Part shown: piece after piece, positions 14,272-32,028 of the stretch
How the letters are laid out: each line of letters opens with the position of its first letter
Position numbering within the stretch: position 1 is the first letter of the stretch
NCBI RefSeq assembly: GCF_026003995.1
Contig: NZ_BPIG01000003.1
Span: 186,001-250,000 of the forward strand
Direction of reading: 5' to 3'
DNA: 64,000 nt
Source of the DNA: Tepidiforma sp.
GTDB taxonomy: Bacteria; Chloroflexota; Dehalococcoidia; Tepidiformales; Tepidiformaceae
Notes under the pieces: generated by a model
The model's database searches: none
Told to the model about the DNA's origin: nothing
Seen by the model: only the letters and a program-made list of their open reading frames with translations
Made by a program: the position numbers and the translations under genes

Positions 14272-17200
14272 CTACGGGCTGACGAGCCAGCTGACCGGGC
14301 TGGGCCCGGGGCGGATAGCGATGAAGTAGCTCCGGCCCGTGCGCAGCGTCGAGAAATCGTTCGCGCCCGGGACGTTTTCGCTTCCGGGGAAGTAGCCGAG
14401 CCACCGCTGGCCGACCGGGTCGAACGTCCAGATGGCGCTGATGCGGGCGCGGATGGTGGGGTTCGCAGCCAGGAGCGCGGCGATGGAGGCGTTATCGGGG
14501 CCGGCCCAGGCGATGAGCGTGTAGGTGGCGTAGAGCGTGTAGGTGACCGGGCCGGGCGTGATGGTCGCCGGGTCGGGCGAGCCGCCGGTGCCGGGTGTGC
14601 CCGTGCCGCTGCCCGGGTTCGAACCGCCGGGCGTGCTGCCCGTGCCGCCGGTGCCGCCGGTCCCACCCGTGCCGCCGGTGCCACCGGTGCCGCCGCTGCC
14701 GGGGTTCGAACCGCCCTGCGTCGGCGGCGCGAGGCAGGTGAAGTCGTCGGCAGCGGTGTTCGGGCTCGTGCCGTTGGGCGTGGTGACGCGGATATCGACC
14801 TGGCCGGGCGCGCGGGCGGCGGGCCGGATGACGAGGGTGTTCTGGTTGACGTAGGTGACCGTCGCGGCGGCCCCGCCGAAGGTCGCAGTGGCGCCGCTCG
14901 TGAAGGCGCTGCCGAGCACGGCAACCTGGAGCGTGCCGTCGCAGACGCCGGAGCTGGGCACCACGCCGGAGACAGCGGGCGCGGCCGTGATGGGGGCCGG
15001 GGTGCTCGTGGCCGGCGGCGGCGTGCTGCTGGACCCGCCCGCGCAGGTGAGGTCGTCGGCAGCGACGTCGGCGGAGGTGCCTTCGACGGTGGTGACCGTC
15101 ACGCGGTAGGAGCCGGCCGGGAGCGCCGGCGCGAGGACGAGCAGCGCGCTTTCGCCGAAGCTGAGGACCAGGTGCTGGTAGTCGACCAGCTGGCCGCCGA
15201 TGCGAACCTGGAGGCTGGCCGCGCCGGCGGAACCCCAGGTGAAGAAGCGGGTGCCGCGGACCACGACCCAGTGCTGGCCGTTGCAGGTGGTGGTGGCGGG
15301 CACGAGCTGCGTGACAGCCGGGCCGGGGCCGTAGTAGAGGAAGTCGTCGGCGGTGCCCTCCCAGGGCGAGCTCCGGGTATCCCACTGGCCGACGGGGACA
15401 TGGACGACGACGCTGGCCGGGCCGTAAGCGGCCGCGGGGCCGCCCGGGCGCGGCGGGGTGGTGCAGGTGATGGTGGTATCGGAGACGACGGTCATGCTGG
15501 CGCAGGGTTCCATGCCGACGTAGACCGTGCTGGCGCCGGTGAAGTTATAGCCGGAGATGGTGATGGGGGTCCCGCCGGCGATGGGCCCGCTGGCGGGCGA
15601 GACCCCGGTAACGATGGGGCCGTCGTTGTCGTAGACCCAAAACTCAACGGCACCGCCCCAGACGGTGGCGCCGCCCGTGGGGTTCACGAGTTCCAGTCGT
15701 ACGGTCTCGTTTTGCTCGATCAGCGTGTCGTCGATCACCGCGAAGTTGCACGGCTTCGGCGCGGTGTCGCCGTCGTCCCAGGTAAGGGTCTGCTGGATGA
15801 AGGTGAAATCGACCCCCGGCGTCGCCGTGAAGCTCGCGCTGGCGAGGCGGCAGACCACCGACACCTGACCCGAGGACCCTCCGGTCCGCCGCACCATTAA
15901 GGAACCCGGCGGGTCACCCTCCCGGTTCCCGGTCACGGTGTCGAACGAAAGGTGGCCAGGCCCGTCGTCCGAGGCGATGAGCACGACGACGGTCGCGGGC
16001 TCGCCCAGGACCGCGCCGCCGGTCGGGTTCGCGAGCTGAAGGCGAACCGCCTCCGCCTGCTCGATCGCGCTGTCGTCGATGATGGCGACCTCGCACTCCT
16101 GCGGGGCAGTTTCGCCGTCTGCCCAGTTCAGCGGCTGGGAGACGAAGGTGTAGTCGCTGCCGAGGGTGGCCGAGCCGGGGACGGCGGCGAGCTGGCAGGT
16201 GACCGATACCCCGCCGGCGGAGCCGTTGACGCGCTCGACCCGGAGCCGGACGGTGCCCGCCGATTCGGGAACCTCCTTCGCGTACTCGCGCGGCCCGGAT
16301 GGCGGCCAGTACCAGTTGAGCCCGCTCACTTCGAACCGAAGGGTGCCCGGCCCATCGTCGTCGAGGATCGTGACGACGGCGCTGCCAGGCGGGGCGATGG
16401 TCGCGCCGGCCGGGTCGACGAGGTCGATGACGATCGTCTCGTTCGGCTCGGCGAGGGTGTCGTTGACCAGCGTGCCGCTGCACGTCTTCGAACCGGCCTC
16501 GCCGGCGTTCCAGGTCAGCCGCTGCTCGGGGAACGCGAAGTCCGCCGGCGCGGCGGCGGTCCCGGCCCCCGCGCCGGTGCGGAGACGGCAGGTCACCGCG
16601 GCCTCGCCGGCGGCGCCTCCGTCGCGCAACACACTGACCTGGAACGTGCCGGCACTCTCGAGCACCTGGACGTTGCCAGTCCGGAACTGGCCCGGGAAAT
16701 CGTCGCTCTGGATGCGGATGACGATCGTCGGCGGGCTGCCGAGGAGCGCCCCGGTGGCGTCGGCGAGTTCGAGGATGATCGTTTCGTCCTCTTCGACCTC
16801 GGCGTCGTCATGGATAGTGATGCGGCAGGGCCTCTGGAGGTCGTCGCCGTCGCCCCACGAGAGCGTCTGGGTCGTGAAGGTGAAATCGGTCCCGGCTGTG
16901 GCGGTGAACGGCGCGGTCGCGGAAAGCCGGCAGGTCACGGAGGCCGGCCCGTTGGCGCCCCCGGTCCGGGCCACGGGGATGGTGATTTCGCCGGTGTTGT
17001 ATTCGTAAGCCGTCAGCGACGCCTCGGTGAACCGGACGGTGCCGGGATTATCGTCATCAAGAATGCCGAGCGTCATCACCGCCCAGCCATAGCCCAAGCC
17101 GGGCGGGAGGCTGGCGGTCGAGAAGGCGATGGGAACCAGTTCCGTGGTTTCGGATTCCAAGTCGTCGAGCAGATGAACGGGGCACCACGTTACCCACTCC

Positions 17201-17898
17201 CCGGCGCCGAACGTGGCCGTGTACTTGCGGTCGACGGTCCAGCCGGGCAGGCCGTAGTCGGTCCCGAGCGTCGCCCTCTGGGTCGCATCCGGGTGGTCGT
17301 AGGAAATGCATTCGACAGCAAGACTGTTGCTCGTGTCGCCGCTCCGAAGCAGCGGGACCTGAATGAGGCCGGTGCCCTCCCGCACCGGGAGATGCCCCAA
17401 GTTTGGGAAGGTCACCCGCGCGGGGCCGTCGTCGTCCACGGTGGTAATCGTGTGTCCCGAAGGCCAGGCCTTGAGCGCGGTGGACCCGTAGGGGATGGAA
17501 AGGTCGAGGATGGCGAGTTGGATGCCGTCGTCGCTGGTGTTGTCCGGGAGCGACAGGCAGGACGGCCCGGGCCAGTTGATGGTCCGCTCGGTGACGCCGG
17601 GCGCGAACACGAGCGTCACCCTATCGAACGCATAGAACTCCGACGCTGAGGAGGTGCCCATGTATGGGCTGTACACGTCGACGGTCTGATGAGTTGACGT
17701 ATCCCCTTCGCGGATGACCTTGATGCAGACCTGCGCGCCCGGGCCCTCGCGGACCCAGGAGAGCGCCTGTTCGAAACGGAAGCGCGTCACCGGCGGGGTA
17801 TCGGCGCCGGCGCGCCGTTCGCTGCCGGCGATCGGCAGCAGCAAGACGGTGAGGGCGACGAGCGCAACCGCCGCCCGGCGCATGAGCATCCTGTGCAC
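14272..17898 (-). CDS. Secreted Calx-beta and IPT/TIG multidomain surface protein
   Basis: A 1208-residue exported protein. A signal peptide at the N-terminus (MLMRRAAVALVALTVLLLP) is followed by about six Calx-beta-like units in roughly 35-730. These carry the recurrent GTDFTF, DDGDTAP and IEQNETVRLELVNPTG motifs and end in DDDGPG calcium-loop remnants. Three IPT/TIG immunoglobulin-like repeats follow (about 735-1045), then a Gly-Gly-Thr linker encoded by 9-bp repeats, and a 100-residue C-terminal domain with a WAG...FDPVGQRWLGYFPG region. Such proteins act in adhesion or cell-surface binding. The GTG at 17898 is chosen because AAGGAGG lies about 6 nt upstream. No sortase motif is seen. Confidence 0.85.
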   Translation of the reverse strand: MHRMLMRRAAVALVALTVLLLPIAGSERRAGADTPPVTRFRFEQALSWVREGPGAQVCIKVIREGDTSTHQTVDVYSPYMGTSSASEFYAFDRVTLVFAPGVTERTINWPGPSCLSLPDNTSDDGIQLAILDLSIPYGSTALKAWPSGHTITTVDDDGPARVTFPNLGHLPVREGTGLIQVPLLRSGDTSNSLAVECISYDHPDATQRATLGTDYGLPGWTVDRKYTATFGAGEWVTWCPVHLLDDLESETTELVPIAFSTASLPPGLGYGWAVMTLGILDDDNPGTVRFTEASLTAYEYNTGEITIPVARTGGANGPASVTCRLSATAPFTATAGTDFTFTTQTLSWGDGDDLQRPCRITIHDDAEVEEDETIILELADATGALLGSPPTIVIRIQSDDFPGQFRTGNVQVLESAGTFQVSVLRDGGAAGEAAVTCRLRTGAGAGTAAAPADFAFPEQRLTWNAGEAGSKTCSGTLVNDTLAEPNETIVIDLVDPAGATIAPPGSAVVTILDDDGPGTLRFEVSGLNWYWPPSGPREYAKEVPESAGTVRLRVERVNGSAGGVSVTCQLAAVPGSATLGSDYTFVSQPLNWADGETAPQECEVAIIDDSAIEQAEAVRLQLANPTGGAVLGEPATVVVLIASDDGPGHLSFDTVTGNREGDPPGSLMVRRTGGSSGQVSVVCRLASASFTATPGVDFTFIQQTLTWDDGDTAPKPCNFAVIDDTLIEQNETVRLELVNPTGGATVWGGAVEFWVYDNDGPIVTGVSPASGPIAGGTPITISGYNFTGASTVYVGMEPCASMTVVSDTTITCTTPPRPGGPAAAYGPASVVVHVPVGQWDTRSSPWEGTADDFLYYGPGPAVTQLVPATTTCNGQHWVVVRGTRFFTWGSAGAASLQVRIGGQLVDYQHLVLSFGESALLVLAPALPAGSYRVTVTTVEGTSADVAADDLTCAGGSSSTPPPATSTPAPITAAPAVSGVVPSSGVCDGTLQVAVLGSAFTSGATATFGGAAATVTYVNQNTLVIRPAARAPGQVDIRVTTPNGTSPNTAADDFTCLAPPTQGGSNPGSGGTGGTGGTGGTGGTGGTGSTPGGSNPGSGTGTPGTGGSPDPATITPGPVTYTLYATYTLIAWAGPDNASIAALLAANPTIRARISAIWTFDPVGQRWLGYFPGSENVPGANDFSTLRTGRSYFIAIRPGPSPVSWLVSP

Positions 17899-18010
17899 GA
17901 CACCCTCCTTCGTTTCGCGGCCCGGTTGCCGTCGTGTTGCGGGCCGGGGAAGGAATCGTAATGAGGACGGCCGCGTCACGTCAGCAGGTTTTCGGCCCCC
18001 GGCGCAAAGT

Positions 18011-18077: not shown

Positions 18078-18719
18078 ATGACCGGCTTCGTCAGCGCCTT
18101 CCCCGGGCACGCCATCCCGGCCGACGACCCGACCCGCCGGCGCGTCATCATCGACCTCGGCTGCGGCACCCGGAAGAAGCCGGGCGCCATCGGGCTCGAT
18201 ATCGCGCGCGTGCCGGGGGTCGACGTCATCGCCGATGTGATGCGGCCGCTGCCGCTGAAGGACGATTCGGTCGATGAGGTGTACGCCTCGCACCTCATCG
18301 AGCACGTGGACGACGTGCTGGCGTTCATGGGGGAGGTGTGGCGGGTGTGCAAGCCGGGCGCGCTGGTGTACTTCCGCTTCCCGCACGGGTCGACGCCGTA
18401 CCTGACGTGGAAGGACCCGACGCACCGGCGGGGCGTCTACCTGGCGATGTTCGAGTATTTCGACCCGACGACGCTGGACGGGCAGCTGTGGGGGTATTAC
18501 CACCCGGCGAAGTTCAAGATCGAACGGCGGCGGCTGTGCTTCAATTTGAACGCGGATACGCGCCAGCCGGGGCGGGGGCGGCGGCTGGTGGGCGCGCTGC
18601 TGGACTGGCTGGCGAACCGGGACGAGCGGTGGCTGTACGTGTGCGAACGGTGGTGGGGGAACTGGGTGGGGATGGAGGAGGCGCACATCTGGCTGCGTGC
18701 GCTGAAGCCGGGGCGGTAG
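18078..18719 (+). CDS. Class I SAM-dependent methyltransferase
   Basis: A 213-residue protein with the Rossmann-type methyltransferase core. Motif I is IDLGCGTRKK near 25-34, followed by GLDI (acidic end of strand 2), a DVIADVMRPLPLKDDSVD segment and ASHLIEHVDDVLAFMGEVWR, as in the Methyltransf_11 family. The C-terminal third, with many Trp, Tyr and Arg residues, probably forms the substrate site. Similar enzymes sit in polysaccharide or lipid modification pathways. The ATG at 18078 follows the GATAAT box by 7 nt. Substrate unknown. Confidence 0.85.
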   Translation: MTGFVSAFPGHAIPADDPTRRRVIIDLGCGTRKKPGAIGLDIARVPGVDVIADVMRPLPLKDDSVDEVYASHLIEHVDDVLAFMGEVWRVCKPGALVYFRFPHGSTPYLTWKDPTHRRGVYLAMFEYFDPTTLDGQLWGYYHPAKFKIERRRLCFNLNADTRQPGRGRRLVGALLDWLANRDERWLYVCERWWGNWVGMEEAHIWLRALKPGR

Positions 18720-18740
18720 GGGGGATTCTGTCGCGTTGTT

Positions 18741-18756
18741 GTCGCGTTCGCGCGAC
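18741..18756. promoter_or_regulatory. Hairpin or operator before the brxD-like operon
   Basis: GTCGCG-TTCG-CGCGAC, 6-bp arms with a 4-nt loop, preceded by a direct copy of TGTCGCGTT. It lies 61 bp before the first gene of the operon, in the promoter area. Function unknown. Confidence 0.35.
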
Positions 18757-18817
18757 GTATTGCGAAGCAGCCAGGGCACGCATAAACTCCCCCGCGACGC
18801 TCATCGGCGGGATTACC

Positions 18818-19600
18818 GTGCTCGAAGAACTGTTTTCGGAACTCGATGCGGCCCTGGGTGACCTCGACACGGCGGCACAGCGGTCTGCCAGGGCTGCCCG
18901 CGCCTCAGCGCGTGCGAGCCGCGAAGGCGAGATTGGACGCATCCGGCGGAGTATCGAGGCGGTCACCGCGGCACTCCCGCAGCTGACGGCCTCCCTCGAA
19001 GCGGCCCGCGAGCGGCTGAGCCGAGTGAGCACCGCGCTCGAGACGAACCCCGGCGCACTGAAAGACGAGGTTCGCGAGCTCTCGTTGAAGCAAGGCTGGG
19101 AATGGCAGCCGACGGACCGGGAATCGACCGCCGTCGTCTTTCCCGTCATCGTCACGTTCAGCGGCGACGCCGTCCGGCTGGACCACAAACCGTTTCGCGG
19201 TCAGCGACCGAGCGCGGTCGTTGCGGGGATCCAGCGGGCGCGGGCGCGGTTTCGGGAGGACGCTTCGACGCAATCCATCCTGCGGGCTATCTACCGGGCC
19301 ACGCTGTATGCCGCCGGGCAGGCCCAGCGCCGGCCCGGCCAGCGCGATGATTCGTTCTCAGCGGACGCAGGTGCGGTGTACGAGATTCTCTCGCTCAATA
19401 ACCCCGAGTACACCGCGGCAGACTTCACGCGACACCTGTATCTCCTCGACCGGCGCGTGAACAACTTCATCGATGGCTACCGGCTCTCGCTCCCGGCGTC
19501 GACCGGCACCCGCGCGCGCACGCCGTTCCGCATCTACGGCCCGGACGGCTACGAGCACGTCTACTACGCGATCAGGTTCGAGAGGGTCGCTGATGCCTGA
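18818..19600 (+). CDS. Unknown coiled-coil protein, first gene of brxD-like operon
   Basis: I do not recognise a family. The 260-residue product has a long alpha-helical, coiled-coil-like N-terminal half (about 1-95, rich in Ala, Arg and Glu, with heptad-like LPQLTASLEAARERLSRV). A globular mixed domain follows (about 100-260), beginning VVFPVIVTFSGD and ending RIYGPDGYEHVYYAIRFE. The start is a GTG at 18818 with a weak GGCGGG upstream. Its stop overlaps the next gene by 8 nt (ATGCCTGA), so the two are translationally coupled. As it heads an operon with a BrxD-like ATPase, it may be a scaffold or DNA-binding partner; this is inference. Confidence 0.7.
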   Translation: MLEELFSELDAALGDLDTAAQRSARAARASARASREGEIGRIRRSIEAVTAALPQLTASLEAARERLSRVSTALETNPGALKDEVRELSLKQGWEWQPTDRESTAVVFPVIVTFSGDAVRLDHKPFRGQRPSAVVAGIQRARARFREDASTQSILRAIYRATLYAAGQAQRRPGQRDDSFSADAGAVYEILSLNNPEYTAADFTRHLYLLDRRVNNFIDGYRLSLPASTGTRARTPFRIYGPDGYEHVYYAIRFERVADA

Positions 19601-20528
19601 CGTCCCGCTCGAAATATTGCGGCGCTCCCTGCGGGAAGAGTATTTCGAATCTTTCCTGCCGGCCGGTGGCGGCACCGTGAAGATTCTCGTCGCAGACGAC
19701 CCGGTGCGGCGGAAGGCGCTCGACGACATCTCCGCCGATGCCGAGGCGGCCGGGGTCACCGTCTTCGACCTTACGGCCGACGACGTGCTGCTTCACAAGA
19801 TGGATGCAGTGTGGTCCGCCATCGCGCGAAAGGTCGACTGGGACGGGCTCGTCGATCGGTATCTCCGAAGGATCTGCGCGGACATCGGTTTCCCGATGGA
19901 TGACCCGGGGATTCCCTGCACTCTCGAACGGGTGTGCGCGACGTACGAAGTCGACCGCTCCCAGGTGACGACGGCGTACCAGGCCGCGGTGCGCGACCTC
20001 ATCTTCCGCGACTATGGCCTGGACATCGATTACCGGAAGGCGATGACCGTTCTGGTTCACGGCGCATTCTCAGGTTCCGAGAATTTCCAGACATCTGTCG
20101 CAAAAATGTGGCTCGCCGGCGAAGACGTGTTAGCGCGAGATTTGCGCGAAATCCAGATTTTCCAACGTATCGATCGGACACGAGCGCGTTCGATTCTTTA
20201 TTCTTTCATCAGGTCGCGTTTTCGCTTCGGCCTACCGACAGCTTTCGTTCTCGATGGAAGCCGATATTACACGGAACGGACCCGGCTTGGCACACTTCGT
20301 TTCACAAGACTTCAGCTCTTCGACCTGTTCGAGCTCGTTCGCGAGTTCATCGACGAAGCGGACAGGCTCCATGGCGCGGCCATCATCTTTACGTTTCCGC
20401 AGGATTTCGTTGAATCTGAGCGCCGGTCGTTCGACATCTACCGCGCACTCTACTCTCGGATAGCCGACGACGTCCGGGGACGCGATCGGGCCAATCCGTG
20501 CGCGGCGCTGCTGAGGGTAGCTCTGTGA
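19593..20528 (+). CDS. BrxD-like protein lacking a P-loop (probable pseudo-ATPase)
   Basis: The 311-residue product resembles the BrxC/BrxD (DUF2791) layout of the next gene but without nucleotide-binding residues. Where the partner has a Walker A loop, this protein reads VADDPVRRKALDD (33-45). Both share a downstream motif, W-x(4)-[DN]-x-L-x-ARDLR (here MWLAGEDVLARDLRE). A hydrophobic strand follows that ends FVLDGS here against FLDEVEL in the partner. This alignment is by eye. Bases 20050-20330 are less GC-rich than the surroundings, a sign of transfer. It overlaps both neighbours (8 nt and 4 nt). A degenerate regulatory subunit is my best guess. Confidence 0.6.
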   Translation: MPDVPLEILRRSLREEYFESFLPAGGGTVKILVADDPVRRKALDDISADAEAAGVTVFDLTADDVLLHKMDAVWSAIARKVDWDGLVDRYLRRICADIGFPMDDPGIPCTLERVCATYEVDRSQVTTAYQAAVRDLIFRDYGLDIDYRKAMTVLVHGAFSGSENFQTSVAKMWLAGEDVLARDLREIQIFQRIDRTRARSILYSFIRSRFRFGLPTAFVLDGSRYYTERTRLGTLRFTRLQLFDLFELVREFIDEADRLHGAAIIFTFPQDFVESERRSFDIYRALYSRIADDVRGRDRANPCAALLRVAL

Positions 20529-21779
20529 ACGACAACGCTATCGGTGCCCGCTGGGCTATCGAGGCGCTCCGCAACGGAGTCCCGAACCGCCACGCAGTGG
20601 CGCTCTTGGGGACGTTCCAGCAGCGGATCGAGGAGCGGTTTCGCCAGCAGGCCCTCGAGACTGCGGTTTCGCCAGGAACCCGCGGGTTTCTGGTGCGTGC
20701 CGATTTCGGAGCGGGGAAGTCACACCTCCTCTATGCCCTGCAGCAGATTGCGAGTGACCTGAGTTTCGCGACAGCCACGCTCGCCGTCTCGAAGGAGACG
20801 CCTCTGAGCTCCTTCCCCCGGACGGCACGAACGATCCTGCGGCAATTGCGCCTCCCGGATATGGAGGGGACCGGCTTGCCGGCGGCGGCGACCCGCGCGA
20901 AATTCCAGAGCGAAGACTGGCTCGACCTTCAGACCTGGGCTGACGGTCTCGAATTCGGCGGAGGCTGGTGGGGGCGCGACGCTGGCGCTCTACGCAAGCC
21001 TCCGGGCGCAGCACGAGCTGTCCGACCGGGTCGTTCGCTTCTGGGGCGGCGATAACAATCTCACCGCCCGGGATCTGCGCAACGAGCTCCACCAGCGAGG
21101 CGTTTCGGGCATCCAGCAGCTCGGCCCGCGCCCGGCGGCTGGCGAGCTCGATTATCAGCGGCTGGCCTTCGCTTCCCGTTTCGTCCAGGGACTGGGCTTC
21201 AAGGGGCTCGTCGTCTTCCTCGACGAGGTCGAGCTCATCGCGCAATATCCCCGCCAGCAGCGCATCCAGGCGTACCGCAACCTGGCGGCGCTCCTCGGAC
21301 AGACGGACCGGCCGGAGCTCGCAGAGGCAGCCCTCCTTGTCGTCGGCGCAGTTACCTCGGATTTCGACGATGCCGTTCTCCGCGGTAAGGAGGACTGGGA
21401 AGAGGTTCCCCGCATAGCGGATGTGAAGTATGGGCCTGAAGCGGCCGAAGCCAGCAAGGCCGGGATGGAGGCGATCCGCGCGGCTATCCCCCTCGCAACA
21501 CCGGACGAAGCAGCTATCGCCCGCATCCGCGAGGTGGTGACAGACATCTACCGGCGGGCCTACGCCGGCTGGACGCCGCCGCCGGCCGACCACATCACGC
21601 TCTACGCTTCGACCCGGATGCGCGAACTCATTCGGCGCTGGATAACGTCGTGGGATCTTCAGCGATATTACGAAGGCCCCGCAGAGATCGAGGTCGAGGA
21701 CATCGGATCGACTCCGACCGACGAATCCGAGGAGCTGACAGCAGGCGAGGAGGGTGGCGCAAGCGACAGCGGCCGGTGA
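20525..21779 (+). pseudogene. BrxD-like P-loop ATPase, +1 frameshift
   Basis: Read with one correction this encodes about 417 residues. The first frame has Walker A DFGAGKSHLL (Lys65). After a shift at the GGGGG run 20970-20974 the next frame carries Walker B VVFLDEVEL (Asp near 233), then a Ser-Asp sensor-like segment (GAVTSDFDDAVL) and a helical C-terminus. Removing one G joins WADGLEFGGGWWG directly to ATLALYASLRAQ. This order fits the BrxC/BrxD (DUF2791) ATPases of BREX and related defence loci; assignment is by motif, not by search. GTG at 20525 overlaps the previous stop (GTGA). As given, the gene is broken; sequence error is possible. Confidence 0.6.
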
Positions 21780-21789
21780 CAGTGAGGGC

Positions 21790-23022
21790 GTGAGGTTCGG
21801 CGGCCCCTACCGCGTCGCACCCGTCCCGGCTCGCAGTCCGGTCGCCCTCCTCCTCCCAGGCGCCGCGATCGGAGCGGTTGCGGCGTTTACGGCGTCCCGG
21901 TTCGAGGGGACGGCAGCCTTCGCGGACCCGGGCTGGGACCGCCACTACTACCTCGAGGCGGCCCGCGCCGGGCCGTGGAATTTCCACATCGCGCCGTATT
22001 GCTGGCGGGTGCTGGTCCCGCTGCTGGCCTGGGCGGCGCCGCTGCCGCTCCAGTGGACGTTCCTCGCGGCCGCGTTCGCCGGCGCGTTCACGGCCGGGGC
22101 GGCCACCTGGCGGCTGCTCCGCAGCGAAGGCCACCCGCCCGGGCTGGCGGCTGCGGGCGTGCTGCTGCTCTTCGCGACGGGCTGGGGGCTCCGCTACCAG
22201 CTGGCGGATTTCTGGCTGCCGGATGCGGCGGCCTCGGGTGCCATCGCGCTCTGCCTGCTGTTCGCGGCGCGTGGCCAGCCGCGCGCGTTCGCGGCGGCGC
22301 TCTTCGCCGGCGCGCTGGCGAAGGAGAGCGCGCTCATCGCGGCCCCGCTGGCGCTGGCGTTCGCCGACCGCCTGCCGGGCAGCGGCCGCCGCCGGCTCGT
22401 GACGGGGGCGCTGGCGCCGCTGCCGGGTGTCGCGGCGGCAGTCCTCGTGCGGGTCGCCATCCCGGCGTGGAACGACGACGCGGGGTATGTGGCCTCGCTG
22501 CCGCCGGTCATCAGCCGCTTCCCGGAGATCGTGGCCCATTACGACTACCGCTCGCTGCTGCGGGAGGTGGGCTGGGAGCAGCGGGTGCTGGGGTTCGACG
22601 GCGGGCTCGCGCGGGCGCTGACGTTCGGGACGTTCGGGCCGCTCACGGCGGCGCTGGCGCTCGCCGGGGCAGCCGCGAAGCCGCGGCTGGCGGCCCGGCT
22701 GGCGCCGGTGCTGCTGCTCGCGTGGGCGCAGCTGCTGGTGGCGCGGGACACGGAGCGGCTCGTGGCGATGGCGGCGCCGGCGGTCTGCTGGCTCGCGGTC
22801 GAGGGAGCGGGCGCGGTCTGCCGGCGGGGGTTCGCGCGGCCGGCCGATGCCGCTCTCGCCGCGGCGGGGGCGTTCGCGCTCGCGCTGGCGAACGGCCGGG
22901 AGGCATTCGGCCTCGATCTCGCGGCGCAGGGGCTGCTCGCTGGGGGCGTGCTCGCCGCTCTGGCCTTCCGCCGCGGGTTCGAAGGTGCGCGCCCGTGCGG
23001 CGGCGTCAATCCTCGAGGATGA
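21790..23022 (+). CDS. Polytopic membrane protein, GT-C-like
   Basis: A 410-residue protein with about 10-11 membrane segments. After helix 1 comes a periplasm-side loop DPGWDRHYYLEAARAGPW and later APYCWRVLVPLLAW, a layout seen in GT-C type glycosyltransferases and DUF2029-like proteins, where an acidic first loop is functional. No adjacent glycan genes support this. The GTG at 21790 is 10 bp after the brxD-like gene; a GTG at 21754 inside that gene is the alternative. Its last 17 bp overlap the dodecin gene on the other strand. Codon use returns to the genome norm here. Confidence 0.6.
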   Translation: MRFGGPYRVAPVPARSPVALLLPGAAIGAVAAFTASRFEGTAAFADPGWDRHYYLEAARAGPWNFHIAPYCWRVLVPLLAWAAPLPLQWTFLAAAFAGAFTAGAATWRLLRSEGHPPGLAAAGVLLLFATGWGLRYQLADFWLPDAAASGAIALCLLFAARGQPRAFAAALFAGALAKESALIAAPLALAFADRLPGSGRRRLVTGALAPLPGVAAAVLVRVAIPAWNDDAGYVASLPPVISRFPEIVAHYDYRSLLREVGWEQRVLGFDGGLARALTFGTFGPLTAALALAGAAAKPRLAARLAPVLLLAWAQLLVARDTERLVAMAAPAVCWLAVEGAGAVCRRGFARPADAALAAAGAFALALANGREAFGLDLAAQGLLAGGVLAALAFRRGFEGARPCGGVNPRG

Positions 23023-23490: not shown

Positions 23491-23517
23491 CGAGAGCCGG
23501 CACACGAGGAGTTCGTG

Positions 23518-24088
23518 ATGTCGGCGTTTTTCGTTTCTACGGCCCTGATTTTCTTCGCCGAGCTGGGCGACAAGTCGCAGCTGGTGGCGCTCTGGTTCGC
23601 GACGCGCTACCGGTGGTGGATCGTGCTGGCGGGGGTGAGCCTCGCGACGCTGGTGGTGCACCTGGGGTCGGTGGCGCTGGGGCTGGCGTTCGATGAGCTG
23701 CTGCCGGAGCGGTGGCTGCTCACCATCGTGGGCGTCTCGTTCTTCGCCTTCGCGGCGTGGAGCCTGCGGGGCGACACGCTGGAGGAAGAGCCGGGCGAGC
23801 CGCGCCTGGGGAAGCGGTTCGGCGCCTTCGGGGTCGTGACGGCGGCGTTCTTCCTCTCGGAGCTGGGCGACAAGACGATGCTGGCGACCGTCTCGCTGGC
23901 AGGGCGGGAGTCGAGCGCGGTGGGCGTGTGGCTGGGTTCGACGTTGGGGATGGTGCTGGCCGACGCGGGTAGCGATCGGCGCGGGGGTGCTGGCGGGGAA
24001 GCGGCTGCCGCAGCGGGCGATTGCGGTGGTGGCGGCGGCGCTGTTCGCGATATTCGGCGCGTGGGCGCTCTGGTCGGCCTGGGGCTGA
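23518..24088 (+). pseudogene. GDT1/TMEM165-family manganese exporter, +1 frameshift
   Basis: The family exchanges Mn2+ or Ca2+ across the membrane and has two ExGD(K/R) motifs. Both are present: FAELGDKSQLVALWF near the start and LSELGDKTMLATVSL near 120. After VLADA the frame breaks; dropping one G from GGG at 23967-23969 restores VAIGAGVLAGKRLPQRAIAVV and a final helix ending at the TGA 24086-24088, giving 189 residues, the usual bacterial length. GAGGAG precedes the ATG at 23518. The stop lies inside the left 43-bp direct repeat. A manganese riboswitch upstream supports the role. Confidence 0.82.
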
Positions 24089-24126
24089 CCGGCTTCAGCC
24101 CCGGCGGCGGATGGCGAGGGCGGAGA
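24084..24126. repeat. Left copy of perfect 43-bp direct repeat (DR-L)
   Basis: Bases 24084-24126 are identical to 28620-28662. The repeat begins GCTGACCGGCTTCAGCCCCG. It contains the stop codon of the GDT1-like gene. Copy spacing is 4536 bp. The right copy is the native 3' end of the ABC permease gene, so this left copy looks like the duplicated target of an insertion. Confidence 0.9.
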
Positions 24127-24181
24127 CAACGCCCGAGTTCTTCGTTAGAATTCGCGGCCCATTTCGCCTTCAGGAGTCATC

Positions 24182-27100
24182 ATGTCGTCGCCTTCGTGTC
24201 CGCAATGCGGCGGAGTGATGGAGCTCAAAACTGCCCGAAAGGGCTCGAACGCAGGGAAAAAGTTTTGGGGCTGTACACGCTATCCCGACTGCAAGGGCAC
24301 GCGGCCGTATGACGAGAACGAGAGCGGCGAGCCCACTGATCGACAGCGGGCCAGCGGCGACATCGCTCCCGAAGAACTCCCCCATGTGGTGGAGATCGCC
24401 TCGCTGTACCCGGAACTCCAGGGCCGGCTCTACCAGGCGGTGGGACTGCCGCAGCGGTTCGTCGAACGGGTGCATGATGCGGACGTGCCGATGCGGCTCC
24501 GCCGGGCCGCGGGCCAGTGGCGGCTCGACCTGCCGGAGCCCGGGCCGCGGTCGGACGACATCCGGGACCAGTTCGGCACCCTGATCGCGGTCGTCGAATC
24601 GATCCTCACCCGCGGCGCCATCACCTTCGTCGACCCGGCGATCGAGGAGGCGCTCCCGGACCCGCCGAGGGAGCTGGCGACCGATGACGACATCACCGGC
24701 GCTGTCGAGGAGCTCGCCGCAGCGCCGACGATCCCGTTTCGGCCGCGGACGGACCTGCCCTTGTGGGGAGAGGGCCGCCGAATTGCCGAGTGGTTCTTCG
24801 AGCGCGGCTTCGACCGCCAGGGCTGGACGATCGTCCCGCGCGTCGCCGTCCACCCGGTCTTCGCGGAGCCGGGCGCGAACCGGCCTCCGGAGCTGCCGGT
24901 CGTGCTCGCGCACCCGTCCATCGAGGCCCTCACGGCGGTCGACGTGAGCGGCGCACTCGCCGGACCAGGCGGAGCTGACTGGCGATCGTGGTTCGACCGG
25001 CGGCTCATGGAGGTCATCCCGGGCGGGGGGAACCTGGCGCGAACCGCGCGGGTCGAAGAGATGCTCCGGCGCGCGGGCAGCCGGCCGCGGAAGGAGGAGC
25101 CGCTGACGGACCTGCGACTTGCGCGCTTCGGCCACCAGGTGCAGATCGCCGTCTTCGAAGCGTTCCGGGCCGGCTTCTTCCCGAACCTCGAGCACTGGGA
25201 GGTGGCCGTCCTCCCGCCGCAGCGGCTCGTGGATGAAGCCGCAGAACACGTCGAGCTCGTCCTCTCGGCGGCCGTGGAAGGGCTGGCCGAGCTGGTCTAC
25301 CGGGTCGCGTGCCTGCATGAGTTGCCGCTCTCGCGGCCGACCACGCGGGTCCACACGACTCCCGCGAAGGGCGCGCCCGGTGCCGCCGTGCTCGTCTCAG
25401 CGGGGCAGCCGCAGGCCGCGCTGCCGCCGCCGGTCGCGGGCCTGCCGCGATTCGTCATCCACGACCTCCCGCTCGGGATCAACGTCGCGGCCCCGATCTC
25501 GACGGCGCGAGCCGTCCGGGCAACCGCACCGGCCCGGGAGCACGCGGAGTGGATGCTCCGGTACATCTTCCGCAAGCAGGGCTTCTGGGAAGGACAGTGG
25601 GAAACGATTCAGCGGACCCTGCAAGGGAAGGACACGCTCGTCCTTCTGCCCACCGGAGGCGGGAAGTCCATCGCCTTCCAGCTCGGGGCGCTCTGCCTGC
25701 CCGGCGTGTGCATCGTGGTCGACCCGATCGTGTCGCTGATCGAAGACCAAATCGACAACCTTCGGCGGGTCGGCATCGACCGCGCGATCGGCATCAGCAG
25801 TCTGATCCGGGAGCGGCAGGAGCGGGAAGCTGCCGTGAATGCCATGGCCCAGGGGCGTTACCTCTTCTGCTATGTCGCCCCGGAGCGGTTCCAGATCTCG
25901 ACGTTCCGCGATGCGCTGCGCACCCTCACGGCTATCGTCCCGGTCTGTTCCGTCGCGATCGACGAGGCGCACTGCGTCTCCGAGTGGGGACACGATTTCC
26001 GGACGGCGTACCTGAATCTCGGCCGCATCGCGCGGGACTACTGCCAGAAGGACGGCAAAGCCCCGCCCCTCGTAGGCCTGACCGGCACTGCGAGCTACAT
26101 CGTCCTCCGCGACGTCCAGAACGAGCTCCAGATCAGGGATTTCGAAGCGCTGGTGACGCCCACCACGTTCGACCGGCCGGAGCTGAAGTTCGAGGTGCTG
26201 CGGTGCGCCTCCGACGAGAAAGTGAACCGTCTCGTGGGAGTCCTGAACTCGCTGCCGTCACGGTTCGGGATGACCCCCGGCGCTTTCTTCGACCCGCGCC
26301 GGCCGAAGCCGGCAGCGGGGCTCATTTTCTGTCCTTTCGTGCAGGGGCCGTTCGGGATTCGCTCGATTCACGAGGAGGTCGAGAAGCGGCTGAGCGGCAA
26401 ATTCGGCATCTATGCCGGGCAGCTCCAGGACGACGAAAAGCGGAGCAACGCCCGGGACTTCAAACGGAGCCGGGTGCACGGGCTCGTGTGCACGAAAGCC
26501 TTCGGCATGGGCATCGACAAGCCGAACATCCGCTACACGATCCATACAGGCCTCCCGGAGTCGATCGAAGCGTTCTACCAGGAGGCCGGGCGCGCCGGGC
26601 GCGACCGGGGCCGCGCGTATTCGTTCATCCTGCTCTCCGATGAACAGCAGGGCGTCAACCGGCAGCTCCTCGACCCGAACACGACCGTCCAGGATATCGA
26701 AGCAACCCAGCAGAATCGCCGGAGGTACGGCACCGACGACGACGTCAGCCGGGCGCTCTGGTTCCACCTGCAGGCGTTCAGGGGGCGCGAGCAGGATCTC
26801 CAGACGACGCGGGTGGTGCTGGAGCTCCTGGGCGAGACCGGGTACGCGCGAGCAACGTCGCTGCAGTGGAGGGGGCAGGACCCGAAACGCTTCCGTGTGA
26901 GGGCGACCGGGGACCCCGGGAAGGACGGGGACGCCGTCCGCTCGGCGATGGAGAAGGTGCTCCATCGGCTCGTCGTCCTCGGCGTGGTCGCCGATTACAC
27001 GGTCGATTACGCGCACAGTGCGTTCGAAGTGAAGGTCGCCGGCGCCGACGCGGGCACGGTCCGGGACCGACTCCTGCAGTACGTGCGTGGGTACCAGGCA

Positions 27101-27817
27101 GGCCTCGTGCGGGGGTACGCGGAGCGGCTCGATACGGCAGCGGAACGTCCCTGGGACGAGTTCGTCCTGTACGCGTGCGAGCTCCTCATCGACTTCATCT
27201 ACGAGCACATCGAACGGGCGCGGCGCCGGTCGCTGCAGGAGATGCTCGAGGCGGCCTCTGCCGGCGACGGCGAGGCGCTGCGGGACCGCATCCTGAACTA
27301 CCTGACCACCACCGAGTACGACGACTACCTGGTCCAGATGGTGAACGCGGTGACCGAGCCGGAAGAGCACGATGCGATGACGGGGCTGTTCGAGCTCATC
27401 GTGGCGCCGCTCGACGCTGAGCGCGTCCGGGGCGCGGCGGGCCGGTACCTCACCTCCTATCCCGACCAGCCCGCCCTGCTGATGGTGCGCGCCGCAGCCG
27501 AAGCCCTCGCGCGGGAACCGGACGGCGTAGCGGTGCGGCAGAACCTGACCGCCGCCCTCCAGTTCGGGCGGACCCGCTACCTGTACGACGATGGGCGGCT
27601 CGCGCGCCTTGCGGGGACGGCAATCGGGCTCGTCGCGGGGCGGAAACCGGACATGGCGCGCCGGATGGCCCTCGAGGCCGCGCGCGCCCAGGCCGACCAG
27701 CCGGAATTCGTCCGGGAACTGGCGCGGGTCATGCCCGAGGTGACCGCCGTGCCGGCGGCGCTGGTGCTGGCCGAACGGCTCGCTGCGAGAGTCGACCACA
27801 TCTTGAAGGCAGGGTGA
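24182..27817 (+). CDS. RecQ-like superfamily 2 helicase with N-terminal topoisomerase-type zinc ribbon
   Basis: A 1211-residue protein. Residues 6-37 form a four-Cys zinc ribbon (C6, C9, C31, C37) as in topoisomerase I C-termini. About 40-470 is a long unknown region. The helicase core has Walker A LLPTGGGKS (Lys495), DEAH in IDEAHCVSEWGHDFR (594-597) as in RecQ, and motif VI QEAGRAGRDRGR (from 800). About 330 residues of unknown, mostly helical sequence follow. Canonical RecQ is about 600 residues with RQC and HRDC domains, which I do not see. TAGAAT lies at 24146 and AGGAG before the ATG. The gene lies in the repeat-bounded insert, which suggests a defence or mobile-element role. Confidence 0.85.
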   Translation: MSSPSCPQCGGVMELKTARKGSNAGKKFWGCTRYPDCKGTRPYDENESGEPTDRQRASGDIAPEELPHVVEIASLYPELQGRLYQAVGLPQRFVERVHDADVPMRLRRAAGQWRLDLPEPGPRSDDIRDQFGTLIAVVESILTRGAITFVDPAIEEALPDPPRELATDDDITGAVEELAAAPTIPFRPRTDLPLWGEGRRIAEWFFERGFDRQGWTIVPRVAVHPVFAEPGANRPPELPVVLAHPSIEALTAVDVSGALAGPGGADWRSWFDRRLMEVIPGGGNLARTARVEEMLRRAGSRPRKEEPLTDLRLARFGHQVQIAVFEAFRAGFFPNLEHWEVAVLPPQRLVDEAAEHVELVLSAAVEGLAELVYRVACLHELPLSRPTTRVHTTPAKGAPGAAVLVSAGQPQAALPPPVAGLPRFVIHDLPLGINVAAPISTARAVRATAPAREHAEWMLRYIFRKQGFWEGQWETIQRTLQGKDTLVLLPTGGGKSIAFQLGALCLPGVCIVVDPIVSLIEDQIDNLRRVGIDRAIGISSLIRERQEREAAVNAMAQGRYLFCYVAPERFQISTFRDALRTLTAIVPVCSVAIDEAHCVSEWGHDFRTAYLNLGRIARDYCQKDGKAPPLVGLTGTASYIVLRDVQNELQIRDFEALVTPTTFDRPELKFEVLRCASDEKVNRLVGVLNSLPSRFGMTPGAFFDPRRPKPAAGLIFCPFVQGPFGIRSIHEEVEKRLSGKFGIYAGQLQDDEKRSNARDFKRSRVHGLVCTKAFGMGIDKPNIRYTIHTGLPESIEAFYQEAGRAGRDRGRAYSFILLSDEQQGVNRQLLDPNTTVQDIEATQQNRRRYGTDDDVSRALWFHLQAFRGREQDLQTTRVVLELLGETGYARATSLQWRGQDPKRFRVRATGDPGKDGDAVRSAMEKVLHRLVVLGVVADYTVDYAHSAFEVKVAGADAGTVRDRLLQYVRGYQAGLVRGYAERLDTAAERPWDEFVLYACELLIDFIYEHIERARRRSLQEMLEAASAGDGEALRDRILNYLTTTEYDDYLVQMVNAVTEPEEHDAMTGLFELIVAPLDAERVRGAAGRYLTSYPDQPALLMVRAAAEALAREPDGVAVRQNLTAALQFGRTRYLYDDGRLARLAGTAIGLVAGRKPDMARRMALEAARAQADQPEFVRELARVMPEVTAVPAALVLAERLAARVDHILKAG

Positions 27818-27820
27818 TCG

Positions 27821-28624
27821 ATGACGATCGAAGAAGAACTGGCGAAGTTCCTCACGCTCGAGGAGGCCGTCGCCGGCCTGGCGGACCGGCTCGAGCAGCT
27901 GCGCTCCGAGACCGAACGGTACGACCAGGCGCGCGGACACCTCGACGACGCTGCCCGGCAGCTCGACACGCTCATCGCCGGGCTCACAGAGGTCACGAGC
28001 GGCGTCGGGAGCGTGATCGAGACGCTGCGGAGCATCGATACCGCGGCGCTGCTCGTCGGACAGGAAGAAATCGCGGGGCGTTTCGCGGCGGTGGAATCCG
28101 GGTTCGCCGAGGCGCGGGCGCAATCGGGAGCGCTCCAGGCGGCGTTCGAGGCGACGGGGCAGTCCGTCGTCGAAGCGGTGGGAGCTGTTCGCAGTGCGCT
28201 CGACAGCCTGCCGGCTCAGCTCGCAGGGGTCGAAGAAGCGTTGACGGGAAGGCTCGATGCCCTCGACGCCCGGTCCAGCGCGGCCGAGGAACGGCTCGCC
28301 GGCCTCGCTGCGGGAAACGGCGCGTCGATCGAGGCCCTCGCCGGAAAGCTCGAGCGGTTCGAATCGAGCTCCAGCACCGCCCTGGAAGACCAGCGCGCAC
28401 TGATCCTCTCCAGCGCGGCGGAGACCGCAAAGAACGTTCGGTCATCACTGGAGTCATTTGCCACGACCGTCAGCGAGGGGACGAACCGCCTGGAAGCCGC
28501 TGAAGCCGCCACGAGGCAGGAGCTCCAGGCGGCCATCCGTCAGCTCCAGGGCAGAGTCACGATCGGTTTCGGGGCCCTCGGAGCCCTGGGCATCGCGACA
28601 CTGGTAGCGGCGCTCATCCGCTGA
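27821..28624 (+). CDS. Coiled-coil protein with C-terminal membrane anchor
   Basis: I do not recognise a family. The 267-residue product is almost wholly helical and coiled-coil-like through residue 240, with repeated Ala/Glu/Leu heptads, resembling methyl-accepting or apolipoprotein-like rods. One C-terminal hydrophobic segment (about 245-265, IGFGALGALGIATLVAALI) ends in Arg, suggesting a tail-anchored protein with the rod in the cytoplasm. It starts 3 bp after the helicase stop, so the two form an operon and may act together. Its TGA lies in the right copy of the 43-bp repeat, at the same offset as the GDT1-like stop in the left copy. Confidence 0.72.
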   Translation: MTIEEELAKFLTLEEAVAGLADRLEQLRSETERYDQARGHLDDAARQLDTLIAGLTEVTSGVGSVIETLRSIDTAALLVGQEEIAGRFAAVESGFAEARAQSGALQAAFEATGQSVVEAVGAVRSALDSLPAQLAGVEEALTGRLDALDARSSAAEERLAGLAAGNGASIEALAGKLERFESSSSTALEDQRALILSSAAETAKNVRSSLESFATTVSEGTNRLEAAEAATRQELQAAIRQLQGRVTIGFGALGALGIATLVAALIR

Positions 28625-28662
28625 CCGGCTTCAGCCCCGGCGGCGGATGGCGAGGGCGGAGA
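28620..28662. repeat. Right copy of perfect 43-bp direct repeat (DR-R)
   Basis: Identical to 24084-24126. This copy contains the stop of the coiled-coil gene and, on the minus strand, the last codons of the ABC permease gene (LAIRRRG and stop). The sequence beyond the repeat differs on both sides. Confidence 0.9.
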
Positions 28663-29368
28663 GCGCGATCGAGCCGAGCGCGAAGAGCGCCATGATAGCC
28701 AGCGAGGTGCCGAGGTGCGTCCCGGGCAGGTCCGTCGATGTGGCGCGGATGGCATCCGCGGCGTAGGTCGGCGGGGCGAACCGGGCCGTCTCGCGCAGCG
28801 CGGCGGGCAGCTGCTCGCGCGGCATCAGCACGGGCGCGAAGAAGAGTACGTAGAAGATGATGAGCTGGGTGAGGGCGTTCGTGAGCTGCGGGTGGCGCGA
28901 ATACACCGCCATGGCGATGCCGACGCCGGCGAGTGAGCCGACGCCGAGGAGAATCGCCACCGGCAGCAGCGGGTGCAGTTCGAGGGCGAGGTCGTACCGC
29001 CACGCGCCGACGGCGAGGCAGAAGAAGATGCCCGGCAGCGCCATGACACCCACGGCGGTGACCAGCGCGAGCAGGTAGGCCTCGCGGCTGATCGGCATGC
29101 TCAGGTAGTAGTCGAGCCGCCCTTCGTGCTTCGACTGGGCGAGCAGCTGGGGGAGCATGACGAGCCCCATGGTGACGACGCCCTGCGTCGCGGTGCCGGT
29201 GACGATGTAGAGGGCCGTCGATTCGGTGATGCCGGGGATGAGGTAGCCGAAGCCGAAGACGAACCCGACCATGAAGCCGATCTGCACGGCGGCGATGATG
29301 GGGACTTCGCCGCGCATGCTGCGCAGCTCCATCGAGACGAGGTCACGGTACTGGCGGAGGAAGGTCAC
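28631..29368 (-). CDS. ABC-2 type transporter permease
   Basis: A 245-residue protein with six membrane helices and the ABC-2 exporter layout, including a KHEGRLDYYLSMPISREAYLLA coupling helix between helices 2 and 3. It is the membrane part of an exporter with the ATPase encoded just upstream; the genes overlap by 4 nt (ATGA). The 3' end carries the right 43-bp repeat. Such pairs export drugs, lipids or peptides; the substrate is unknown. Confidence 0.87.
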   Translation of the reverse strand: MTFLRQYRDLVSMELRSMRGEVPIIAAVQIGFMVGFVFGFGYLIPGITESTALYIVTGTATQGVVTMGLVMLPQLLAQSKHEGRLDYYLSMPISREAYLLALVTAVGVMALPGIFFCLAVGAWRYDLALELHPLLPVAILLGVGSLAGVGIAMAVYSRHPQLTNALTQLIIFYVLFFAPVLMPREQLPAALRETARFAPPTYAADAIRATSTDLPGTHLGTSLAIMALFALGSIALSALAIRRRG

Positions 29369-30721: not shown

Positions 30722-30761
30722 AGGGCGAACGTTGACGGGGGCTGGCGTAGGCTGTGGGGCC

Positions 30762-32007
30762 ATGACGTCCGCGACGACGCCGGGCCGCGCCGGCGAGGTG
30801 GCGCGCTACTTCTTCCGCCTTGGGTGCATCGCCTTCGGCGGGCCGGCCGCGCACATCGCGCTGATGCGCCGCGAGCTGGTCCGCGAGCGGGGCTGGGTAA
30901 GCGACCAGGAGTTCCTCGACATGCTGGGGGTGACGAACCTCATCCCCGGCCCCAATTCGACCGAGATGACGATGCACCTCGGCCACCGGCGCGCGGGGAT
31001 GGCCGGCCTCTGGCTGGGCGGCCTGCTCTTCTTGCTCCCGGCGGTGGCGATCGTGACGGCGCTCGCCTGGGCCTACGTGCGGTACGGGACGACGCCCGCC
31101 GGCGAGGGCATCCTGCTGGGGGCGCAGCCGGTGGTGCTGGCGCTCATCCTCCACGCGGCGTGGGGACTGACGGGGGCGGCGTTCCGCGGCCTCGAGTCCG
31201 TGATCGTCATCGCGGCCGTCACGGGGCTCGCCCTCGCCGGCGTGAGCGAAGTCGCGCTGGTGCTGGGCGCGGGCGTGTATTCGGCCGCGGCCTGGGCGCT
31301 CGTGCACGCGCTCACGCGCTCCGCGCGGCGGCAGCTGCCGGAGCTGCCGCGGGCCGGCGGCCACTGGTGGCGGCTGCCCCGCCAGCGGAAGGACGGGACC
31401 GGCCGGGACCGGCGGTCCCGCGGCTGGCTGCCGCCGCTCGCGCCCGGCCCGGCGCTGGCGGCTGCCGGCGGCGCCGCCGGGGCGACGACGCTCGGCATCT
31501 TCCTCGGCTTCCTGAAGATCGGGGCGGTGCTGTACGGGAGCGGCTACGTGCTCGTCTCGTTCATGCGTGACGAGTTCGTCCAGCGGCGAGTCTGGCTCAC
31601 GGAGGCGCAGCTGCTGGACGCGATCGCGGCCGGGCAGGTGACGCCTGGGCCGCTCTTCAGCTCGGCGGCGTTCGCGGGCTACGTGATGGACGGCTTTGCG
31701 GGGGCGCTCGCGGCGGCGGCCGGCATCTTCCTGCCGTCGTTCCTGTTCGTGATGCTGGCGGCGCCGTTCGTGCCGCGGCTGCGGCGGTGGCGGCTCTCCG
31801 CGGCCTTCCTCGATGGGGGTGAACGCCGCGGCCTGGGCGCTCATCGTAGTCGTCAGCGTGCAGCTGGCGCGGGAGGTGCTCACCGGCCCGTTCGCGTGGA
31901 GCCTCTTCGCGGCCGCCCTCGGCGCGGCGGTCGCGACGCGGATCAACTCGGCGTGGCTGGTGCTCGGCGGCATCGCGCTCGGCCTCGCCTGGACGGCGGC
32001 GGGCTGA
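30762..32007 (+). pseudogene. chrA: Chromate transporter ChrA family, +1 frameshift
   Basis: CHR-family transporters expel chromate. The protein has two CHR half-domains: the first with CIAFGGPAAHIALMRRE and NLIPGPNSTEM, the second with FLKIGAVLYGSGYVL and AAGQVTPGPLFS. Near codon 352 the frame breaks in GGGGG at 31815-31819. With one G removed, AAFLDG continues as VNAAAWALIVVVSVQL and the protein ends at 32007 with 414 residues, about the normal length. As given, the last 64 residues are out of frame. The start ATG at 30762 has TAGGCT 8 nt before it and no good Shine-Dalgarno. Confidence 0.85.
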
Positions 32008-32028
32008 ACGACGCGTCGGTGGGCCGGC

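What the first reader, a model, noticed from the sequence alone, without database searches (positions are those of the whole stretch)
18818..21779. Three-gene operon: coiled-coil protein, P-loop-less BrxD-like protein and BrxD-like ATPase
Seen: three overlapping genes (8-nt and 4-nt overlaps). The third has Walker A DFGAGKSH and, after correcting one G, Walker B FLDEVEL. The second aligns by eye to it: VADDPVRRKA where the P-loop should be, a shared ARDLR motif, and FVLDGS at Walker B. Established: BrxC/BrxD (DUF2791) ATPases belong to BREX and are also found in other defence loci such as those with helicases. Inference: an active/pseudo-ATPase pair plus a coiled-coil partner forms a compact defence or DNA-processing system. 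No PglX, PglZ, BrxC or TerB gene is nearby, so it is neither BREX nor, as far as I can tell, Shango. Lower GC in 20050-20330 suggests transfer.
Basis: partly seen in the sequence, partly recalled or inferred. Interest (0 to 1): 0.85.

Follow-up and report, generated by a model that had tools for sequence, protein, structure and literature searches.

The report
Paired ATPase/pseudo-ATPase defence-like operon
Three overlapping genes encode a coiled-coil protein and two related DNA-handling ATPases, one of which has lost its ATP-binding loop; the same trio occurs in many bacterial phyla, often with a DNA-moving and sometimes DNA-cutting enzyme, and looks like an undescribed defence system.

Summary
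In detail: A (18818-19600), B (19593-20528) and C (20525-21779, frame broken near 20965-20985) overlap by 8 and 4 nt. C is a BrxC/BrxD-family (PF10923) AAA+ ATPase; B is its paralogue without P-loop or Walker B acid pair. All three occur in the same 16 of 148 related genomes. In 86 distinct loci from about a dozen phyla they stand in order A-B-C in 68; B and C are fused in 16 (A found beside only 3); 2 are cut. An SNF2 helicase is present in 40 of 65 loci with enough sequence, and 17 of 44 helicases end in an Mrr-like nuclease. Two relatives keep the P-loop in B, and six more distant loci are active BrxD-like pairs, four beside a BrxHI/SngC-like helicase; in the tree B lost ATP binding once. 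The window's trio is GC-poor and absent from the same site in a close relative. It fails the BREX and Shango tests. Best reading: an undescribed, mobile ORC/Cdc6-type module that loads or controls a helicase, probably against invaders. Defence is inferred, not shown. This copy lacks the helicase, and C's broken frame may be assembly error.

The parts
18818..19600 (+). Gene A: 260-aa coiled-coil protein (helical hairpin residues 2-76, then alpha/beta part)
   Evidence: model pLDDT 92; 58 sequences aligned; no significant Pfam, PADLOC or NCBIfam match (best E 0.02); no significant PDB fold match
19593..20528 (+). Gene B: 311-aa BrxD-like pseudo-ATPase, no P-loop, FVLDGS at the Walker B site
   Evidence: tree
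20525..21779 (+). Gene C: BrxD-like AAA+ ATPase; Walker A DFGAGKSH, Walker B VFLDEVEL; frame changes within about 20965-20985
   Evidence: intact in relatives; two other window genes also show frame changes against relatives
18723..21789 (.). Segment absent from the same site in a close relative (L197, genome G001). Upstream boundary sharp at 18722; downstream boundary not resolved at the DNA level (gene match from 21790, DNA alignment resumes at 21897)
20050..20330 (.). Lowest-GC 281-nt stretch of the window, inside gene B

Best explanation
The three genes are the core of an undescribed, horizontally moving operon. Shown by sequence: C is an AAA+ ATPase of the BrxC/BrxD family with intact Walker motifs; B is a paralogue that, in the tree, lost its P-loop once; A is a coiled-coil partner that accompanies separate B and C genes; in many loci a small protein D (fused to the helicase in some) and an SNF2 motor E follow, and in a minority E ends in an Mrr-like nuclease. 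Inferred: B and C form a mixed AAA+ assembly in which only C hydrolyses ATP and B is scaffold or regulator; A couples it to DNA or to a signal; the assembly recognises invading DNA and loads or licenses the SNF2(-Mrr) motor on it, as has been proposed for BrxD and BrxHI. In trio-only genomes such as this one a helicase encoded elsewhere would have to serve, the trio acts alone, or the copy is on its way out.
For: A, B and C in the same 16 of 148 genomes (A has one further short match). Of 86 distinct loci, 68 have separate A, B and C, 16 have B-C fusions, 2 are cut by contig ends. Distances of A, B, C and E correlate (Mantel r 0.89-0.94, 0 of 999 permutations as high; 37-60 loci). The pseudo-ATPases form one clade (100/99) joined to the two P-loop-intact B relatives (100/99), and the tree nests phyla in one another (56 rows, 17 of the 86 loci chosen by hand). 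Active tandem BrxD-like pairs lie beside BrxHI/SngC-like helicases in 4 of 6 loci. C's P-loop region weakly resembles helicase loaders and a DnaA-related protein (no E below 0.15). E is SNF2 with or without Mrr, nearest PADLOC models ZorD1 and DpdE. Empty site in a near relative; lowest GC in the window. Restriction-type neighbours in a few loci (ten neighbours chosen by eye).
Against: No experiment. B was not found on plasmids or in viral contigs, nor C in phage records. Among 16 fused loci A was detected in only 3; the Nitrospirota fusion genes sit in a conserved neighbourhood near a glutamyl/glutaminyl-tRNA synthetase gene with no E found, which looks vertical. Several neighbours printed look by eye like ordinary genes. 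25 of 65 loci with at least 2.5 kb after C lack E. 27 of 44 E sequences lack the nuclease domain, some of them partial. Foldseek matches of B and A are weak.
Confidence: 0.58

Rival explanations
1. A housekeeping DNA-metabolism module (helicase loader or repair complex), not defence.
For: AAA+ of initiator/loader type (weak matches); B-C fusions in a conserved neighbourhood in Nitrospirota; trio-only loci next to genes that look ordinary by eye.
Against: Patchy: 16 of 148 related genomes, 2 of 6 in the genus; present/absent at one site between near relatives; gene trees cross phyla; helicase partner related to defence families.
Confidence: 0.22
2. In this window the operon is a decaying remnant: C is frame-broken and D-E are missing, so it does nothing here. 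(This concerns the one copy and can be true together with the best explanation.)
For: Frame change in C; no D-E beside it and only weak SNF2 matches to E elsewhere in the genome (best E 3.5e-17, one query).
Against: 2 of 53 other orthologues compared also show frame changes, both within this window, so assembly error is plausible; C of the same-genus copy L017 is intact although that locus also lacks D-E.
Confidence: 0.35
3. A transposition or mobile-element regulator of the IstB/TniB/MuB kind.
For: Best Foldseek hit of B is IstB; segment present/absent at one site.
Against: The recurring partner is an SNF2 helicase. Apart from D/E and the Nitrospirota block, the most recurrent neighbour families were ABC-type ATPases and a histidine kinase; the rarer ones were not checked for transposases. 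The repeat search over 18690-21860 found no repeat pair at the two ends.
Confidence: 0.06

Closest known systems
BrxD/BrxHI dyad of type-2 BREX (Pgl)
   Same: Same AAA+ family (PF10923). BrxD is classed as ORC-Cdc6 AAA+ and suggested to load or activate BrxHI (PMC12839542, passages). Distant twin relatives here lie next to BrxHI-like helicases.
   Different: C and B of L026 score far below the BrxD equivalog cut-off (62.5 and 37.4 of 350 bits). Two paralogues, one without P-loop. SNF2 instead of BrxHI. No PglX, PglZ or BrxC model among the 10 flanking window proteins scanned.
Shango (SngA TerB-like, SngB ATPase, SngC helicase)
   Same: A small operon with a BrxD-like ATPase and a helicase. SngB falls on the same side of the midpoint-rooted tree as B.
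   Different: No TerB match in the proteins scanned, E is not SngC-like in the best 25 listed, and SngB scores are low. Shango is described with one TerB-like protein, one ATPase and one helicase (PMC10250203, passages).
Zorya type I ZorD
   Same: SNF2 helicase with Mrr-like nuclease; nearest PADLOC family of E.
   Different: No ZorA/ZorB match among the five genes scanned; E is shorter and has other partners.
DUF499 BREX-Related (Hma) systems and other paired ORC/Cdc6 systems
   Same: AAA+ ATPase with SNF2 helicase, often with nuclease (PMC12839542: abstract, sections 28 and 36, passages). A second Orc/CDC6 gene with disrupted Walker B is mentioned in another context (PMC10853773, passages).
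   Different: Those carry a methyltransferase, HerA or KAP partner, and the described inactive copy keeps Walker A. The A-B-C arrangement does not appear in the passages seen.

Membership tests
PF10923 BrxC_BrxD | Score above gathering threshold 22.2 bits | tested here: met
   C halves 31.5 and 33.7 bits. B of the window 15.8 (not met); its homologue in L026 44.6 (met)
BrxD (NF033438 equivalog) | Score above 350 bits | tested here: not met
   31 and 17 bits for the halves of C; 62.5 (C) and 37.4 (B) for L026
BREX | PglX, PglZ and BrxC in the locus | tested here: not met
   None among 10 flanking window proteins by PADLOC at 1e-8 (10 of the 57 window genes called); A-E show only weak BrxC hits at the P-loop
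Shango | TerB-like SngA, SngB ATPase, SngC helicase | tested here: not met
   SngB 12.9 and 15.6 bits for the halves of C, 26.4 (C) and 18.6 (B) for L026; no TerB-type hit; E nearest ZorD1/DpdE
Zorya I | ZorA/ZorB motor with ZorC/ZorD | tested here: not met
   No ZorA/ZorB hit for the five genes of L026 or for the window trio; other neighbours of those loci not scanned with PADLOC
Pseudo-ATPase | Loss of P-loop and Walker B acid pair conserved across the family | tested here: met
   No P-loop-like pattern in B of 67 of 68 loci with separate B; the exception L031 has an intact one, and L187 found later has one too. The 13 aligned B rows lack the DE of Walker B. B parts of the fused genes were not tested for the pattern
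Pseudo-ATPase | No ATP binding or hydrolysis | not testable with these tools
   Needs biochemistry
Anti-phage defence system | Protection against phage | not testable with these tools
   No experiment; only indirect genomic evidence

The most novel reading that the evidence does not exclude
A distinct, undescribed immune system family, 'twin BrxD': a coiled-coil subunit with a paired ORC/Cdc6-type ATPase assembly whose first subunit became a pseudo-ATPase, acting as a sensor and loader on which different effectors (DEAD helicase, SNF2 helicase, SNF2-Mrr nuclease) have been swapped.
Probability: 0.48. Interest if true: 0.85.

Novelty: new variant of a known kind. Interest (0 to 1): 0.71.

Why it matters
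BrxD-type ATPases accompany helicases in type-2 BREX and a related ATPase does so in Shango, but what they do there is unsettled. Here they come in pairs, one without and one with an ATP-binding loop, with living relatives that still keep both loops and with natural fusions of the two. This makes the loader or mixed-ring hypothesis directly testable. In the libraries scanned (Pfam, PADLOC 2023, NCBIfam 2026) A and D match nothing significantly, and B and C match only the general BrxC/BrxD family and, below the NCBIfam cut-off, BrxD, so routine annotation would probably miss the system in phyla known mostly from metagenomes.

Tried and rejected
Pairing of the trio with the window's RecQ/DpdF-like helicase (24182-27817) was considered. 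Orthologues of that helicase are in G002 and G003, but in G003 it lies about 170 kb from the trio, so adjacency is not conserved. Both trio genomes of the genus have it, against 1 of 4 others: too few to judge. Not counted as a part.

A as a known fold: Foldseek gave nothing with E below 0.49. B and C profiles against PDB sequences gave only weak matches. The second structural aligner was not available.

The Nitrospirota gene c2 (246 aa) was considered as a divergent A: Pfam gives a weak regulator-like match, and the A profile reported nothing at E up to 10 in the seven fused loci looked at. Dropped.

Searches of plasmids with B, phage records with C and viral contigs with B found nothing. A true BrxD for the tree was sought: 0 of 294 class genomes at E 1e-60; 2 of 350 phylum genomes at 1e-50, neither over the cut-off and one of them the SngB gene. 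The control genomes also held none over the cut-off, so BrxD itself is not in the tree. The letter-pattern column for Mrr is stricter than the profile count and was not used. Literature: searches showed no paper describing this gene set in their listings; the library holds open-licence papers only.

Full report
Observation. A runs 18818-19600, B 19593-20528, C from 20525; overlaps are 8 and 4 nt. The frame of C changes between about 20965 and 20985; both halves match PF10923 BrxC_BrxD above its gathering score (31.5 and 33.7 bits against 22.2). B of the window matches the same family only at E 0.007, but its homologue in L026 matches at 1.3e-11, and the B and C profiles match each other at E 2.4e-6, probability 89. 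In the 13 B rows aligned the P-loop is absent and the Walker B position reads like VxxLDISRY, without the acidic pair. In C the P-loop is present: 78 of 84 loci with C fit a strict pattern, and the other six carry GKS with the first glycine changed.

Conservation. Among 148 related genomes (the window's own included) B was found in 16, C in the same 16, and A in those 16 plus one short coiled-coil match in G022. In the other 15 loci the genes lie side by side in the order A-B-C; A was found by translated search in 14 of 15 and by profile in all 15. A scan of genome contigs with the B alignment, using one peptide pattern, matched 109 relatives, of which 80 loci were returned. By their record titles they come from Chloroflexota, Nitrospirota, Nitrospinota, Actinomycetota, Acidobacteriota, Armatimonadota, Bacillota, Pseudomonadota, the former Deltaproteobacteria, Spirochaetota, Latescibacterota and CSSED10-310; all but one title (L058) begin with MAG. 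Of 95 loci, nine were dropped as duplicates. In the remaining 86, 68 have separate A, B and C, 16 have B and C fused into one reading frame (A detected beside 3 of these), and 2 are cut by contig ends (one of the 68, listed as B-A-C, is an over-long reading frame in L096). Since these loci were found through B, the fair test of co-occurrence is the 148-genome comparison. A possible start of B lies within -25 to +40 nt of the stop of A in 66 of 68 cases, and one of C near the stop of B in 62 of 65 (the nearest candidate start was taken, so this leans towards closeness). In 400 genomes drawn from the phylum, 22 match the B profile at E 1e-10; six of them are the tandem active pairs described below and one (G428) has a P-loop in B. 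The window's class is probably Dehalococcoidia, because several class relatives are the same contigs as records so named.

Longer operon. Downstream of C, a pair follows in many loci: D (about 185 aa, no significant match in Pfam, PADLOC or NCBIfam) and E, an SNF2 helicase. Of 65 loci with at least 2.5 kb after C, 40 have E and 26 have a separate D. The D profile matches the start of E clearly in 8 of 44 E sequences and weakly in 3 more, so D is fused to E there. An Mrr-like domain closes E in 17 of 44; 14 of the 17 show both a DGG[IV]D and a QCK signature, 3 only one of them. Some of the 44 are partial. The nearest PADLOC models of E are ZorD1 and DpdE. Neither the window nor its same-genus relative L017 has D or E beside the trio, and the SNF2-like matches elsewhere in the window's genome are weak (best E 3.5e-17).

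Origin of the dead ATPase. L031 and L187 (the gene of L178) have A, C and a B that still holds a P-loop (GRPGAGKTH, GRPGSGKTH). Six further loci are tandem pairs of BrxD-like ATPases, both with P-loops. In four of these (L183-L186) a DEAD helicase most like BrxHI and SngC lies downstream; in L183 and L184 a weak A-like gene precedes the pair (E about 2e-4). A maximum-likelihood tree was built of 56 proteins, with 17 of the 86 loci chosen by hand. The pseudo-ATPases form one clade (100/99), joined to the two P-loop-intact B relatives (100/99); C proteins form one clade (100/97); first-position ATPases and SngB lie on one side, second-position ATPases and C on the other (95/95). The root is a midpoint, row L017_C is long, and the first- and second-position twins do not each form one clade. 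The simplest history is an old duplication giving two specialised ATPases, then one loss of ATP binding in the first. B and C show the same cross-phylum groupings (a Deltaproteobacteria record with Peptococcaceae, Actinomycetota with Latescibacterota), so the block appears to move as a unit. Distances of A, B, C and E correlate at 0.89-0.94; shared ancestry alone can also raise such values.

Structure. B models at pLDDT 94. Foldseek's best hit is the IstB AAA+ domain (prob 0.99, E 0.012, TM 0.28), with archaeal ORC2 at rank 12; no hit reaches E 0.001. A models at pLDDT 92 as a long helical hairpin with a mixed C-terminal part and no significant match. The C profile's weak PDB matches (best E 0.15) include two helicase loaders, a DnaA-related protein and BrxC-BrxB.

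The window copy. It is the GC-poorest stretch of its size in the window apart from two windows that overlap it, with third-position GC of 0.72-0.81 against 0.88-0.95 in the three neighbouring genes measured. In G001, a genus member whose proteins at this place are mostly 88-99% identical, the methyltransferase (18078-18719) is followed directly by the gene at 21790, without the trio; DNA identity stops at 18722. In G003 a trio only 39-49% identical lies beside the same gene (23515-24312, TMEM165-like by recall), whose protein is about 91% identical. The frame break in C may be an assembly error: 2 of 53 other orthologues compared against relatives also show a frame change, both in this window.

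Mechanism. Shown: anatomy, co-inheritance, one loss of the P-loop in the tree, partner helicases. Inferred: an ORC/Cdc6-like mixed assembly of B and C with A, acting on DNA and controlling an SNF2(-Mrr) motor. The loader idea follows the suggestion made for BrxD and BrxHI in PMC12839542 (abstract, sections 28 and 36 and passages read). That the target is invading DNA rests on the helicase-nuclease type, the patchy and mobile distribution, and restriction-type neighbours in a few loci. Ten neighbours were picked by eye from many and scanned: an HsdR-like protein (L063), a DUF1156 protein and a PLD-SNF2 protein (L064) and HNH endonucleases (L085, L088) fit; a YgjP-like protein, a DUF4143 ATPase, an HTH-M78 protein, an AAA_30 helicase and one without match are neutral. 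They illustrate and do not measure enrichment. Against defence stand the conserved Nitrospirota fusion loci without A or E nearby, the many trio-only loci, and the absence from plasmids, phage records and viral contigs in the searches made.

Comparison with known systems. By score it is not BrxD, BREX, Shango or Zorya (see membership test). The listings of the literature searches showed no description; PMC11890865, PMC10250203, PMC10853773 and PMC11090510 were read in passages only. PADLOC 2023, NCBIfam 2026 and Pfam were the libraries tested; DefenseFinder models were not. I rate it a new variant of a known kind (helicase-coupled BrxD-type ATPase modules), with a real chance of being a separate system. 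In mending this report the claim that A is always present was cut back to the separate-gene loci; it was already weighed in the odds, which are unchanged.

Noticed in passing
window 24084-28673: A two-gene cassette (RecQ/DpdF-like helicase 24182-27817 with topoisomerase-type zinc ribbon, and a coiled-coil gene 27821-28624) is bracketed by a direct repeat (54 nt, 91%, identical over its first 43 nt) and is absent from the same place in G001. Helicase orthologues are in G002 (63%) and G003 (56%).
   Followed up: partly
window 14272-17979: A large Calx-beta/TIG repeat protein gene next to the trio has no counterpart at the same site in G001, so three segments of this roughly 15-kb stretch differ between close relatives.
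   Followed up: no
window 23515-24312 and 30732-32081: Two conserved genes show frame changes against relatives, which suggests indel errors in this assembly.
   Followed up: partly
L033, L035, L036, L039, L040, L042, L043, L047, L049, L051, L084: In Nitrospirota a fused B-C gene of about 860 aa lies in a conserved neighbourhood between a regulator-like gene downstream of a Glu/Gln-tRNA synthetase gene and a gene that looks by eye like a membrane protein, with no A or E found by profile.
   Followed up: partly
L183 6114-11565, L184 9009-14460, L186 5660-10720: Tandem active BrxD-like ATPases with an upstream roughly 300-aa gene and a BrxHI/SngC-like helicase: a second candidate system related to the finding. 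In L183 an SNF2-like reading frame matching the E profile (E 4e-31) lies further downstream, from 14855.
   Followed up: partly
L077 1093-5835: A Nitrospirae locus with two consecutive B-C fusion genes after A.
   Followed up: no
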